From the NCBI GenBank assembly GCA_027449125.1, contig DAIDME010000033.1:1-59325 (forward strand): a stretch of 59,325 nucleotides of DNA, in the 5' to 3' direction. The notes under the pieces were generated by a model. The model saw only the letters and a list, made by a program, of their open reading frames with translations. It searched no databases and had not been told where the DNA came from. The translations under genes and the position numbers were made by a program. This DNA comes from Solirubrobacterales bacterium (GTDB taxonomy: Bacteria > Actinomycetota > Thermoleophilia > Solirubrobacterales > Solirubrobacteraceae). This document shows, one piece after another, positions 6,166-51,698 of the stretch; within the stretch, counting starts at the first letter, position 1, and each line of letters opens with the position of its first letter.

Positions 6166-8175
6166 ATGAGCGCACCGCTGCCAGACCGCGCCTGGGGCAC
6201 CTGGGACGAGCGCTACCCGGCCTGCATGATCCACATCCCGAGCCGCTTCGCGGTGCGCGTGACCGCCTTCAGCGCCACCGCAGGCCGCTACGAGGAGCTC
6301 GCCTACGACGCCTCCGAGACCTTCAGGCTCGGCGAGCACACGTCCGACTCCGGCTACGCCGCACTCGAGGTCAGCGTCCACGGCACCCGCCTGCTGATCG
6401 AGTTCGCCAAGGGGGCCTGGTCAGGGGTCAGTGGCCGCGTGAGCATCATCGAAGCCGGTGAGATGCTCTTCCGCCTGAACCTGATCGTCGAGGCCGGCTT
6501 CCTGGCGCCCGCCGCCGCCGGCCCGCACGAGCCGCCCCGGCGGCTGGTGGACGGACGCACGCGCGAGCTCGCGCTCGGCCGGCGCGCGCCTGGTGACCAC
6601 CGCGCGCCGGCCACCGGCATCGGGCGCTGGCGCAGCCAGTTCTTCGCCGTCGCCGTCTCAGAGACGCCGGCGGTGGCCGCCGCCTACCCCGACCCGGCGG
6701 CGCTCTCCGACGACCTGCAGAACCGCGGCTGGCTGTACCGGCCAGCGGACCACAGCGGCGAGGGAGCCGTTTGGGTCGCTGGGCGACCCAAACGGCTCCC
6801 TCGCGTGGAGCACGACCTGCTCGCCTTCCGCTTCTACGCCGACCCGCGCCAGCCGGTCCGCTTCGCCGCAGCCCAGGACGCCGACCCCGAGCCGGCCGCC
6901 GCCACGGCCGCCGCGCGCCTGCGAGACGTCGACGAGCTGCTCGACAAGGCGCGCAGCGACGCCTGCCGGCCGCCCGCGCCCGCGCGCGCCGTGCGCGACG
7001 TGATGGCCTGGAACACGATCTGGGACGAGACCAACGCCCGCCCCTACACGACCTGCTCGCGCGCCTGGGTGGCGGGCTTCGGCGGGTGGGGCGTGTGGAT
7101 GAGCGACACCTACTACAACGCGATGATGTGCGCGCACGTCGGCGACACGCTCATGGCGCGCGCGAACCTGCAGACGTTGCTCGCGGCACAGCAGGCCGCG
7201 GGCAACGTGCCCAGCCTCACGGCGGCGGACGACGAGTGGGTCGACCGCAGCCAGCTGCCGGTGGCCTGCTACGCGGTCTGGCGCACGTACCTCGAGAGCG
7301 GCGACCGGACGCTCCTTTCAGAGCTCTACCCGGCGCTCTGCCGGCAGCTCGACTGGGTGCGCGCAAATCGCGACGGCAACGGCAACGGCCTGTACGAGTA
7401 CGGCTCCTCGCCGGTCGGCCGCGCGCAGGGGGTCTCGACCCGGCAGGGGGCGCTCAACGAGCCGGGGATGGACAACCTGGCGGTCTTCGACGAGGCGCGC
7501 TTCAACCTCGGGACCGGCACGCTCGAGCTCGAGGAGCCCGGCCACAACAGCCTGCTGGCGCTCGAGTGGGAGCTGCTGGCTCGTGTCGCGGCCGCGCTCG
7601 GCCGCGACACGGAGGCGGAGGCCCACCTGCGACGCTCGCGCGAGCTCGCGCAGCGGATCTCCGAGCAGCTCTGGGACCCGGCGCGCCAGGTGTTCGCCGC
7701 CCGCCACTGGGACGGGCGCTTTGCGGCCCACATCGCGCCGACCAGCTTCTTCCCGCTGGTCGCGGGCGCCGCCACGCCCGCGCAGGCACAGGCGCTGGTG
7801 CAGCGCCACCTGCTCGACGAGGCGGCTTTCTGGGGGCCGTTGCCGCTGCCCTCGGCACCATTCAGCGACCCCGTCAACGCCGAGGACACCTATTGGCGCG
7901 GGCGGATCTGGGGGCCGCTGCTGCTCTTCGTCTGGGAGGGTCTGCGGCGCAGCGGCTTCCGTGAGCTGGCGGGCGAGCTGGCGGCGCGCGCCTGGGCCAT
8001 GTTCGAGCGCGACTGGGCCGCCCGGCGTCACTGCCACGAGAACTACAGCTCGCGCGACCCTGACGGCCACGAGGCGCACGACTCCGATCCGTTCTACTCG
8101 TGGGGGGCGCTGATCGCCTTCATGCAGGACTGCGAGGAGCGCGGCGGGGACCTCTGGGCGCGCGACGACGACTGA
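6166..8175 (+). CDS. GH63-like glycoside hydrolase carrying an in-frame palindromic insert
   Basis: This 669-residue protein has an N-terminal beta-rich part (1-230) and an (alpha/alpha)6 barrel like GH63/mannosylglycerate hydrolase enzymes. Candidate catalytic residues are D436 (NEPGMDNL) and E625 (HENYS), which sit at the positions normally occupied by the general acid and base. No signal peptide is visible, so it is probably cytosolic and acts on a glycoside or small oligosaccharide. It is 10 bp behind the GH106-like gene and probably cotranscribed. Residues 199-213 (EGAVWVAGRPKRLPR) are encoded by a 45-bp perfect palindrome that also occurs twice elsewhere in the window; it lies between the beta domain and the barrel, where a loop insertion would be tolerated. 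The exact substrate is unknown. Confidence 0.75.
   Translation: MSAPLPDRAWGTWDERYPACMIHIPSRFAVRVTAFSATAGRYEELAYDASETFRLGEHTSDSGYAALEVSVHGTRLLIEFAKGAWSGVSGRVSIIEAGEMLFRLNLIVEAGFLAPAAAGPHEPPRRLVDGRTRELALGRRAPGDHRAPATGIGRWRSQFFAVAVSETPAVAAAYPDPAALSDDLQNRGWLYRPADHSGEGAVWVAGRPKRLPRVEHDLLAFRFYADPRQPVRFAAAQDADPEPAAATAAARLRDVDELLDKARSDACRPPAPARAVRDVMAWNTIWDETNARPYTTCSRAWVAGFGGWGVWMSDTYYNAMMCAHVGDTLMARANLQTLLAAQQAAGNVPSLTAADDEWVDRSQLPVACYAVWRTYLESGDRTLLSELYPALCRQLDWVRANRDGNGNGLYEYGSSPVGRAQGVSTRQGALNEPGMDNLAVFDEARFNLGTGTLELEEPGHNSLLALEWELLARVAAALGRDTEAEAHLRRSRELAQRISEQLWDPARQVFAARHWDGRFAAHIAPTSFFPLVAGAATPAQAQALVQRHLLDEAAFWGPLPLPSAPFSDPVNAEDTYWRGRIWGPLLLFVWEGLRRSGFRELAGELAARAWAMFERDWAARRHCHENYSSRDPDGHEAHDSDPFYSWGALIAFMQDCEERGGDLWARDDD
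6759..6803. repeat. 45-bp dispersed palindromic element, copy 1 (in CDS)
   Basis: Two perfect 21-nt arms flank the loop TGG; one extra base pair extends the stem to 6758-6804. Its length is exactly 15 codons. It is read as EGAVWVAGRPKRLPR inside the GH63-like gene and contains no stop codon in any of the three plus frames. It is identical over 45 bp to the copy at 40034-40078 and differs from that at 13389-13433 by one compensated base pair and one loop base. Confidence 0.95.
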
Positions 8176-13385: not shown

Positions 13386-13436
13386 CCGCGAGGGAGCCGT
13401 TTCGGTCGCTGAGCGACCGAAACGGCTCCCTCGCGG
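13386..13436. repeat. Dispersed palindromic element, copy 2 (intergenic)
   Basis: The 45-bp core (13389-13433) matches the copies at 6759 and 40034 except that one stem pair is changed on both sides (GGG/CCC becomes CGG/CCG) and the loop is TGA instead of TGG. Three more flanking pairs extend the arms to 24 bp. The compensated change shows that the hairpin is conserved rather than the sequence alone. This copy lies just upstream of yceH and is probably not translated. The loop TGA makes a stop in one plus frame, unlike the two in-ORF copies. Confidence 0.93.
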
Positions 13437-13475: not shown

Positions 13476-13570
13476 GCCGCTCACCGCTCACCGCCCACCG
13501 CCCGCCGCCAGCCCCAGCCGCTCACCGCCCACCGCGCACCCCGCGCCGCCAGCCGCCCGCCACCAGCCAC
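13476..13570. repeat. CCGCTCACCGC-type degenerate tandem repeats
   Basis: This stretch upstream of the ArsR-methyltransferase gene is nearly all C, G and A. The unit AGCCGCTCACCGC-CCACCGC recurs twice with degenerate copies between. It contains no supported gene. Confidence 0.6.
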
Positions 13571-39971: not shown

Positions 39972-40985
39972 ATGGCGCCCAAACCGACCCCCAACTTCAC
40001 CCAACCCGCCAACCAACCCGCCAACCAACCCGCCGAGGGAGCCGTTTGGGTCGCTGGGCGACCCAAACGGCTCCCTCGCACCGACCGTGACCGTGCGATG
40101 ACCAGGTTGCTACGCGAGAACCACGGCGTCACCACGCTCCGCCAGCTGCGGGTCCTCGGATTCACACCGGGAGAGGTCAAGGGGCTGGTCGCCCACGGCG
40201 CCCTCAGAAGCGTGCACCGCGGCGTCTACGCGGACGGCCGTGCGCAGCTCGGTGATCGGGCCATCCTGCGGGCCGCACTGCTCGCCGCCGGGGAGGGCGC
40301 CTGGCTCTCCGGACAAGCCGCAGCCATGGGCTGGAGTCTCACGGCGCTCAGCCTGGCGCGACTCGAGGTCACCGTCGTCTCCGCGGCGACGCCTCGCCGG
40401 CGGCCTGGCCTGCGGGTCCGTAGCGTGCGCACCGCCCCGTACCCGTCGGAGATCCGCACCCGCAACGGGCTGCGCCTCAGCTCCGTCCCGCGCCTGCTGA
40501 TCGAGGCCGCCGGCGCCGGCGCCACCCGCGAGCAGCTCGACGCCTACATCGAGGCGGCCGTGCGCGCAAAGCGGCTCGACACCCTCGACCTGGAGGCGAC
40601 TCTCGCCCGCCACGGCGGCCGCAGAGGTGTCCAACAGATACGCGCCACCTGCAGCGAGTACCTGCCCGCCCCAGGCCGCCAATCATGGCTCGAGCACGCC
40701 TTTGACCGCTGGCTGCTCGACCATCCCGAAATCCCCCAGCCGCAGCGCAACATCCGCTTCGGACCGTGGGAGATCGACTGTTACTGGCCCGCGCACCGCC
40801 TCGCCCTGGAACTTGACGGTCGCGCCTACCACACGCTCACACACGAGTTCGAGCGCGACCGCCGCAAGGACGCCTGGCTCCAGACTCACGGCATCGTGGT
40901 GCTCCGCGTGACCGCAAAGCGCTTCAGGGACGAGCGCGCGTGCGTCCACCGCGACCTCACGACGATGCTCGCGGCCGCTGCCTGA
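39972..40985 (+). CDS. DUF559 endonuclease-like protein with AbiEi-type winged helix
   Basis: This 337-residue protein has an N-terminal winged helix like AbiEi antitoxins (RLLRENHGVTTLRQLRVLGF, then GALRSVHRGVYADG, about 40-85) and a C-terminal DUF559/Vsr-like nuclease domain (about 240-335): WLEHAFDRWLL, EIDCYWPAHRLALELDGRAYH and IVVLRVTAKRF, with acidic residues fitting a PD-(D/E)xK site. The first 36 residues are unusual: NQPANQPA repeats from a 12-bp tandem repeat, then EGAVWVAGRPKRLPR from a palindromic element. Homology starts only after them, at DRAMTRLL. ATG 39972 is preferred to TTG 39951; ATG 40098 is possible and would exclude the element. Function unknown; such genes are often solitary. 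Confidence 0.8.
   Translation: MAPKPTPNFTQPANQPANQPAEGAVWVAGRPKRLPRTDRDRAMTRLLRENHGVTTLRQLRVLGFTPGEVKGLVAHGALRSVHRGVYADGRAQLGDRAILRAALLAAGEGAWLSGQAAAMGWSLTALSLARLEVTVVSAATPRRRPGLRVRSVRTAPYPSEIRTRNGLRLSSVPRLLIEAAGAGATREQLDAYIEAAVRAKRLDTLDLEATLARHGGRRGVQQIRATCSEYLPAPGRQSWLEHAFDRWLLDHPEIPQPQRNIRFGPWEIDCYWPAHRLALELDGRAYHTLTHEFERDRRKDAWLQTHGIVVLRVTAKRFRDERACVHRDLTTMLAAAA
40002..40034. repeat. 12-bp tandem repeat (2.75 copies)
   Basis: CAACCCGCCAAC is repeated 2.75 times and directly abuts the palindromic element copy 3. It encodes QPANQPANQPA in the DUF559 reading frame. Confidence 0.9.
40034..40078. repeat. Dispersed palindromic element, copy 3 (in ORF)
   Basis: Identical over 45 bp to the copy at 6759-6803 (21-nt perfect arms, loop TGG). 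It is read in the same frame, as EGAVWVAGRPKRLPR, at residues 22-36 of the DUF559 protein when translation starts at 39972. Confidence 0.95.
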
Positions 40986-51087: not shown

Positions 51088-51698
51088 GGGTCGCGCCGCT
51101 GCGCCGCGCGCTCGATTACGGCGAGCGCCCCGACCCGGCGGCCGGCGTCTTCGAGACGCTGCTCGTGCGCGAACGCGGCGTGGTGCGCTACGACGCCCAC
51201 CGCGAGCGGATGAACGCGAGCGCCCGCGCGCTCTACGGCGTGGCGCCGCCGGTTGCTCCCACGCCGCCGCAGGTGCACCGTGACGGCGGCGCCCTGCGTC
51301 TGACCTTCGTGCCCGGCGCCGGGCTGAGCGTGCATGAACGGGCGCTGTCCGCCGACCCCGTCATGCGCGGGCTGGCGCCGTTTGAGCTGCCGGGCGGGCT
51401 GGGGCCGCACAAGTGGGCGGACCGCAGGCTGATCGACGCGCTCACGCGGGCCGCGGACGGGGCGCTCGTGCTGCTTGCCGATAGCGACGGGGCCGTGCTC
51501 GAGGCGAGCTGGGCCAGCGTCCTGATCGAGGAGCGCGGGCGCCTGATCGCGCCGCCCACCGACGGGCGGGCGCTGGCGGGCATCGGCCGTGCGAGGCTCG
51601 AATACGACGAGGAGCCGGTCGACCTCGACCGGCTCCTCGCTGCTGACGCCGTGGTCCTGACCTCGGCGCTGCGGGTTGTGTGGCTGGCTAACCGATAG
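51084..51698 (+). CDS. pabC: Aminodeoxychorismate lyase-like PLP enzyme (short)
   Basis: This 204-residue protein is a fold-type IV PLP enzyme, probably converting aminodeoxychorismate to p-aminobenzoate and pyruvate. The PLP lysine is in GLGPHKWADRRLI. The segments GVFETLLVRERGVVRYDAHRERM and VLEASWASVLIEERGRLIAPP are typical, but the usual LPGxTR near the C-terminus reads LAGIGR. It is about 60 residues shorter than most PabC proteins, missing part of the N-terminal domain around residues 60-80. The GTG start overlaps the pabB stop. Operon context strongly supports PabC. Confidence 0.85.
   Translation: MRVAPLRRALDYGERPDPAAGVFETLLVRERGVVRYDAHRERMNASARALYGVAPPVAPTPPQVHRDGGALRLTFVPGAGLSVHERALSADPVMRGLAPFELPGGLGPHKWADRRLIDALTRAADGALVLLADSDGAVLEASWASVLIEERGRLIAPPTDGRALAGIGRARLEYDEEPVDLDRLLAADAVVLTSALRVVWLANR

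What the first reader, a model, noticed from the sequence alone, without database searches (positions are those of the whole stretch)
6759..6803. Perfect 45-bp palindrome inserted in frame inside a GH63-like glycosidase
Seen: 21-nt arms pair perfectly around TGG; length is exactly 15 codons; no stop in any plus frame; translated as EGAVWVAGRPKRLPR at residues 199-213, between the beta domain and catalytic barrel. An identical element lies 33 kb away in an unrelated ORF in the same reading frame. Known analogue: Rickettsia palindromic elements, which insert into coding genes in a preferred frame. Inference: a mobile or formerly mobile protein-coding palindromic family in this actinobacterial lineage.
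Basis: partly seen in the sequence, partly recalled or inferred. Interest (0 to 1): 0.85.

Follow-up and report, generated by a model that had tools for sequence, protein, structure and literature searches.

The report
Dispersed palindromes paired with nuclease gene
A perfect DNA palindrome found inside an actinobacterial enzyme gene belongs to a scattered family whose copies also sit next to, and in some relatives on both sides of, one kind of nuclease gene, which looks like an unrelated counterpart of the REP/RAYT selfish-repeat system.

Summary
The palindrome is real, and so is its insertion in the glycosidase gene: orthologues (about 80-83% identical) in two relatives lack it. The identical copy 33 kb away is probably not coding; it ends 19 nt before the likely start of an AbiEi-winged-helix + DUF559 (Vsr-like) nuclease gene. 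A third copy (13389) has a compensatory arm change. Covariance models find relatives in the host (8 full copies, one half), in G018, G016 and other genera; 13 of 22 pairs covary.

The palindromes are tied to DUF559 genes. In 41 DUF559 loci not chosen for palindromes, all 9 hairpins of score 14 or more lie at the gene's start or stop. Five genes inspected have the same palindrome at both ends. A model built from one of them (G035) found 22 places in that genome against 0-1 in nine others, and exposed a second family bracketing a second DUF559 gene. But 32 of the 41 loci have no such hairpin.

Best reading: a REP/RAYT-like system whose enzyme is an AbiEi-DUF559 nuclease rather than a Y1 transposase. 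The Rickettsia-like reading (coding element, preferred frame) is only partly right: four copies lie in frame inside proteins, in three phases. Binding, cutting and mobilisation are inferred, not shown.

The parts
   Evidence: absent from both orthologues found
6166..8175 (+). host gene of c1: MGH1-like glycoside hydrolase, 669 aa
   Evidence: Pfam PF22422, E 5.6e-42
13388..13434 (+). palindrome copy c2, with a compensatory arm change; near the 5' end of the DUF480 gene (minus strand) and before an ArsR/methyltransferase gene
   Evidence: the G012 spacer is 172 nt shorter; neighbours by Pfam
40033..40079 (+). palindrome copy c3 (45-mer identical to c1), 18-19 nt before the likely ATG of the nuclease gene
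   Evidence: palindrome and gene absent from the syntenic G012 locus
40098..40985 (+). AbiEi-type winged helix + DUF559/MTES_1575 (Vsr-like PD-(D/E)XK) protein, 295 aa: proposed partner enzyme; start codon inferred
   Evidence: Pfam DUF559 22.6 bits (cut-off 20.6); MTES_1575 30.1 and AbiEi_4 18.8 bits, both below cut-off; motif residues invariant in 10 of 10 homologues aligned

Best explanation
The palindrome is one solo copy of a REP-like element. The presumed autonomous unit is a one-gene module: a protein of about 295 aa (N-terminal AbiEi-type winged helix, C-terminal DUF559/MTES_1575 Vsr-like nuclease) with a 45-55 nt palindrome tight against its start, its stop or both; the palindrome can contain the stop codon. 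Shown: the family, its covariation, empty sites in relatives, pairing with the gene, and a prediction that held in one genome. Inferred: the winged helix binds the palindrome as two half-sites, and the nuclease nicks or cuts there so that repair or replication copies the hairpin to new places, leaving solo palindromes with irregular filler and usually no target duplication; copies inside genes survive where the total insert keeps the frame. The 5' copy probably also serves as an autoregulatory operator.
For: Family and covariation. Empty sites. Pairing: 6 of 51 element places lie within 34 nt of a DUF559 gene; further places found by model R2 lie beside DUF559 genes of G073 and G018. In 41 DUF559 loci drawn by Pfam only, 10 of 11 hairpins of score >=13 (9 of 9 of score >=14) lie at start or stop, zones covering 8.7% of bases; in the 10-genome set 15 of 17. 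Same palindrome at both ends: L231, L254, L286, L241, L323. Prediction test: R3, made from L286, finds 22 places in G035, 0 in 6 and 1 in each of 3 other genomes; a second family in G035 brackets a second DUF559 gene. Geometry: AbiEi is reported to bind two 23-bp repeats 3 bp apart (PMC7319586, passages); G035 palindromes are 23+3+23, the host's 22+3+22. Nuclease motif residues invariant in 10 of 10.
Against: No binding, cleavage or movement was tested. 32 of 41 class-draw loci and 17 of 30 loci of the 10-genome set have no hairpin of score >=13 at either end. A G012 protein that by eye looks orthologous to the host's C34 DUF559 protein has no such hairpin. The zones were set after seeing both sets. 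The host's c3 module has no 3' palindrome at the threshold used (L255). No target-site duplication, so the insertion chemistry is open. Y1 transposases are present in 5 of the 10 genomes searched, the host and G035 among them, so a Y1 enzyme is not excluded there. The structure prediction failed.
Confidence: 0.65

Rival explanations
1. Operators: AbiEi-type proteins autoregulate through inverted repeats, so a DUF559 gene carries one at its start, and dispersed copies are a regulon; nothing moves.
For: AbiEi and Rv2827c bind inverted repeats in their own promoters (PMC7319586, passages); 5' hairpins sit right before the start.
Against: Copies at or over the stop codon, with the same sequence as the 5' copy; copies inside coding genes; presence/absence against syntenic relatives; some dispersed copies lie far from any gene start examined. 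It may be true as well as the best reading.
Confidence: 0.2
2. REP elements moved by a classical Y1 (RAYT) transposase; DUF559 genes are hitch-hikers.
For: Y1_Tnp matches in G000 (2), G018 (3), G012 (3), G077 (2), G035 (3); the layout is like REP/RAYT.
Against: No Y1_Tnp match at E <= 0.001 in G016, G008, G081, G073 and G093, which hold palindromes; G012 has three Y1 genes but no R2 match at E <= 0.01 (two weak R1 matches, E 0.02 and 0.07). Palindromes were found at both ends of DUF559 genes; Y1 loci were not inspected for palindromes.
Confidence: 0.08
3. A protein-coding palindromic element like the Rickettsia palindromic elements, selected to insert in frame in coding genes.
For: Four in-frame copies in recognisable proteins.
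Against: Three phases among four copies; 20 ORFs spanning G035 copies had no Pfam family; the element is 47 nt, not a multiple of 3; net inserts are longer than the element.
Confidence: 0.04

Closest known systems
REP / RAYT (TnpA-REP) systems, REPINs
   Same: Solo palindromes dispersed in the genome; a gene flanked by two copies (inverted in L231 and L254); species-specific sequences; complementary changes in the arms (PMC2817692, passages; PMC3116915 and PMC8266576 seen as listing only).
   Different: The enzyme is AbiEi winged helix + DUF559/Vsr-like, not a Y1 tyrosine transposase; no GT(A/G)G head seen; 47-49 nt near-perfect palindromes; at most 22 places found per genome.
Rickettsia palindromic elements (RPE)
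   Same: Palindromes that can lie in frame inside coding genes (PMC10969869, passages).
   Different: RPEs are about 150 bp; here 47 nt, mostly not shown in recognisable proteins, no single frame, and a partner gene is apparent.
AbiE type IV toxin-antitoxin (AbiEi antitoxin)
   Same: AbiEi_4 winged helix; two 23-bp inverted repeats 3 bp apart (PMC7319586, passages) match the 23+3+23 palindrome.
   Different: The C-terminal part is a nuclease domain; only one gene lies between the palindromes in the modules read.
Vsr-like endonucleases, including DUF559 VsrA of Caulobacter and EDxHD homing endonucleases
   Same: DUF559 proteins are classed as Vsr-like PD-(D/E)XK (PMC12907096, passages); Vsr-like homing enzymes are known (recalled; EDxHD papers seen as listing).
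   Different: VsrA is discussed as mismatch repair; the passages read mention no palindromes. No intron or intein was looked for here.

Membership tests
REP/RAYT | enzyme gene flanked by two palindromes | tested here: met
   L231, L254, L286, L241, L323; inverted orientation clear in L231 and L254, not decidable in L286; the window's own module has only the 5' copy at the threshold used; most DUF559 genes have none
REP/RAYT | enzyme is a Y1 (PF01797) tyrosine transposase | tested here: not met
   The flanked genes are AbiEi_4 + DUF559/MTES_1575; no PF01797 match in 5 genomes that hold palindromes
REP/RAYT | GT(A/G)G head before the palindrome | tested here: not met
   No common head in the flanks of the copies shown, by eye
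REP/RAYT | solo copies dispersed in the genome of the gene | tested here: met
   18 of 22 places in G035 have no DUF559 gene in the 3 kb held; host and G016 likewise; high copy number (>100, REP abstract) not met
Rickettsia palindromic elements | in-frame insertion in coding genes, one preferred frame | tested here: not met
   4 in-frame cases, phases 1, 0, 0, 2; a small sample
Rickettsia palindromic elements | about 150 bp | tested here: not met
   47-49 nt
Insertion sequence / MITE | target-site duplication | tested here: not met
   22 copies: 21 share 0-6 nt between flanks, as chance gives; one (G016 2650237) shares 9 nt
AbiE toxin-antitoxin | AbiEi-type DNA-binding domain | tested here: met
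   AbiEi_4 in 10 of 10 at E <= 1, 8 of 10 above the Pfam cut-off; the window protein is below it
AbiE toxin-antitoxin | adjacent nucleotidyltransferase toxin (DUF1814) | tested here: inconclusive
   One gene only between the palindromes in L231, L241, L286, L323 as read; genes further out were not scanned for a toxin
Vsr-like nuclease | conserved active-site-like residues | tested here: met
   E199, D227, E238, D240, H245, D254 invariant in 10 of 10 aligned; their catalytic role is recalled; activity not testable here

The most novel reading that the evidence does not exclude
A second, independently evolved class of REP-type selfish repeat, driven by AbiEi-DUF559 nucleases: the protein binds its palindrome through an antitoxin-like domain and spreads it by cutting, and occasional in-frame landings add new peptide segments to host enzymes.
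Probability: 0.55. Interest if true: 0.9.

Novelty: new variant of a known kind. Interest (0 to 1): 0.82.

Why it matters
As far as the passages read and my own knowledge go, REP-type repeats with a known partner depend on Y1 (HUH) enzymes. A repeat system paired with an unrelated nuclease would mean the arrangement arose twice. It would give a role to DUF559, still a domain of unknown function in Pfam, and would recast some AbiEi-like proteins as mobile-element enzymes. It also offers genomes with matched enzyme-palindrome pairs (for example two pairs in the single-contig genome G035), so how solo palindromes spread becomes directly testable.

Tried and rejected
Near-exact searches for the palindrome: only the host among 101 genomes at up to 3 mismatches, and no exact match to the 39-mer core in genome contigs (the tool says records of the window's own genome may be left out). 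The arm-only scan (read) gave 103 stretches from many phyla, judged by eye to be hairpins of other kinds; none was followed up. The viral scan gave 1. Plasmids (4 records) and phages (7) gave only weak matches, E 0.4 and 0.5. No Rfam family reaches its gathering score in the window. Intrinsic terminator judged unlikely: GC-rich ends and T/A-richer inner part are the reverse order, and there is a copy inside a gene. Adapter or assembly artefact judged unlikely: compensatory variants, several species, variable filler. Structure prediction of the window nuclease without an alignment failed (pLDDT 35.6), so no fold search was run. No viral relative of the nuclease. One search used a pattern with one base too many in the loop and is void; one search aligned wrong strands and is void. 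Literature: DUF559 occurs in 14 held papers, none about repeats by title; DUF559 + transposon 0; DUF559 + palindromic 2, unrelated by title; Solirubrobacter with repeat terms nothing relevant in the 10 listed of 22. 'Not described' rests on these searches of open-access papers only.

Full report
THE OBSERVATION. One search confirms the 45-bp palindrome at 6759-6803 (21-nt arms, TGG loop) and the identical copy at 40034-40078, and shows a third copy at 13389-13433 that differs by one G-C to C-G swap made on both arms and by one loop base; its arms pair over 25 nt. In 5 Markov simulations of the window the longest arm was 12 nt. The stretch folds 5.9 s.d. below its shuffles.

HOST GENOME. G000 has 113 contigs and 3.17 Mb. 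One search finds a fourth copy (C25:32651-32695), a half copy at the very end of contig C59 (read), as expected if a hairpin breaks an assembly. Within 3 mismatches only the host of 101 genomes has the element, and the scan of genome contigs found no exact match to its 39-mer core.

INSERTION. The glycosidase (MGH1-like domain) has orthologues in G012 and G021, 2 of the 60 relatives searched. Both lack the element and are 17 residues, 51 nt, shorter, i.e. 45 + 6. At the C25 copy both relatives are 66 nt shorter. At 13389 the G012 segment is 172 nt shorter. At 40034 a 1146-nt stretch with the palindrome and the next gene faces 80 nt in G012. So the differences are larger than the palindrome and irregular. 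Of 22 copies, 21 share at most 6 nt between their flanks, as chance gives; one (G016 2650237) shares 9 nt.

THE FAMILY. A covariance model of the four copies (R1) and a wider one of 17 (R2) reach relatives that patterns miss. The host has 8 full copies (C33 x3, C25, C34, C19, C102, C92), the half copy, and a second family (TTGGGGGTTT...). G018 has 10 places; two (C78, C135) have nearly the same flanks and may be one locus, and C63 is degenerate. G016 has 6. Others are in G008, G073, G077, G081, G093, G116 and G112; 18 of the 21 places printed align as 47 nt to the 47-position model. In all, 28 of 151 genomes (host included) have a match at E <= 0.01, some partial. On the 17-sequence alignment 96.8% of cells pair and 13 of 22 pairs change on both sides (0 of 500 shuffles); sliding the partner destroys the signal. 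The sequences were picked by a structure-aware model, which favours this.

INSIDE PROTEINS. Four copies lie in frame inside recognisable proteins. The glycosidase (phase 1). An SDR in the host, C102 (phase 0): residues 172-219 face one residue of 3rd5, the second half of that alignment being weak. An Lhr helicase in G018 (phase 0): residues 1184-1239 face 13 residues of 7lhl. A WS/DGAT acyltransferase in G081 (phase 2): the copy lies in the linker between the two domains, whose length varies, so no net insert can be shown. Other copies sit in long ORFs upstream of a recognisable domain (L163, L214, L220, L228) and are undecided. One G018 copy lies between what I recognise by eye as smpB and a C-terminal ClpP fragment. 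20 ORFs that span G035 copies have no Pfam family.

THE PARTNER GENE. The gene at 40098-40985 has DUF559 above and MTES_1575 and AbiEi_4 below the Pfam cut-off. Of 51 element places examined, 6 touch or lie within 34 nt of such a gene: host C33 and C34, G018, G077, G081, G093. I then started from DUF559 genes. In 10 genomes, most chosen for palindromes (30 of the 32 listed loci), 15 of 17 hairpins of score 13 or more lie at the gene's start or stop. In a class-wide draw chosen by Pfam only (41 of 49 listed loci; left out: the host locus already counted and 7 atypical proteins, six of them over 1,100 aa) it is 10 of 11, in zones covering 8.7% of the bases. I set the zones after seeing both sets, so the p-values (2e-13, 3e-10) are descriptive. 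Hairpin-bearing loci are the minority: 13 of 30 and 9 of 41. A G012 protein that looks orthologous to the host's C34 protein has none (by eye).

BRACKETED GENES. Five genes have the same palindrome at both ends: L231 (46 of 51 nt, inverted by its loop), L254 (inverted by its loop), L286 (45 of 49, orientation undecidable), L241 (stop TGA inside the 3' palindrome) and L323 (likely GTG start on the last base of the 5' palindrome, stop TGA inside the 3' one). L260 is similar but more diverged. In G016 the palindrome before the DUF559 gene shares its outer arms with six dispersed copies. In G073 the palindrome of L241 recurs as a solo copy.

PREDICTION TEST. If the gene owns the palindrome, a genome picked for its bracketed DUF559 gene should hold solo copies. 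Model R3, from the two ends of L286 (G035), finds 22 places in G035, none in 6 and one in each of 3 other genomes (up to 150 candidates scored per genome). The 22 fall in two families by eye. The second, not used for the model, includes two copies that bracket a second DUF559 gene; 18 of the 22 places have no DUF559 gene in the roughly 3 kb held.

MECHANISM. All 10 proteins scanned match AbiEi_4 and DUF559 at E <= 1 (8 and 9 of 10 above the cut-offs), with E199, D227, E238-x-D240, H245 and D254 invariant. AbiEi is reported to bind two 23-bp inverted repeats 3 bp apart (PMC7319586, passages); the G035 palindromes are 23 + 3 + 23 and the host's 22 + 3 + 22. I infer that the winged helix binds the palindrome and the nuclease acts there, so that the hairpin is copied elsewhere; autoregulation by the 5' copy is likely as well. 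None of these steps was shown.

COMPARISON. The layout resembles REP/RAYT (genes flanked by two inverted REPs, solo REPs elsewhere, complementary changes; PMC2817692, passages). As partner, Y1 transposases fail in G016, G008, G081, G073 and G093 (no match), and G012 has three without an R2 match at E <= 0.01; but G000, G018, G035 and G077 also have Y1 genes, whose flanks I did not inspect. It works like REP/RAYT but is not a member. It is not a Rickettsia palindromic element by size or frame (PMC10969869, passages; the original papers were not read).

VERDICT.

Noticed in passing
L166:4780-4870, L167:2340-2460, L168:2297-2335, L181:2320-2420 (host genome): A second host family (TTGGGGGTTTNGGGCGC palindrome, flanked in three of these by further CCCCCAA/TTGGGGG blocks), one copy just upstream of another DUF559 gene (C34).
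   Followed up: partly
window 13480-13570 and 39980-40032: C-rich, tandem-like low-complexity sequence next to copies c2 and c3; G018's Lhr copy is followed by RSGVAGE repeats. Filler of this kind may be a trace of how the element inserts.
   Followed up: no
G000 C59 end (L009:4638-4661), G018 C15:1-23, G018 C135:11-57: Contigs begin or end inside or within 10 nt of the palindrome, so draft genomes probably under-count these elements.
   Followed up: no
L182:1700-2700 (G018 C63) and perhaps L163 (host C34:2674): A palindrome lies between what looks like smpB and a C-terminal ClpP fragment in G018: a possible rearrangement junction; the host copy at C34 may be at the same place (similar out-of-frame peptide).
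   Followed up: no
L040, L041, L101, L105 (Falsiroseomonas selenitidurans); L015, L028, L067, L104 (Crenalkalicoccus roseus): The arm-only scan hit four similar hairpins (GGAGCCGTTTC...) in each of these alphaproteobacterial genomes, possibly repeat families of their own.
   Followed up: no
window 51608-51639: A perfect hairpin (15-nt arms) also present in the syntenic G012 stretch with the same arms and a changed loop.
   Followed up: no
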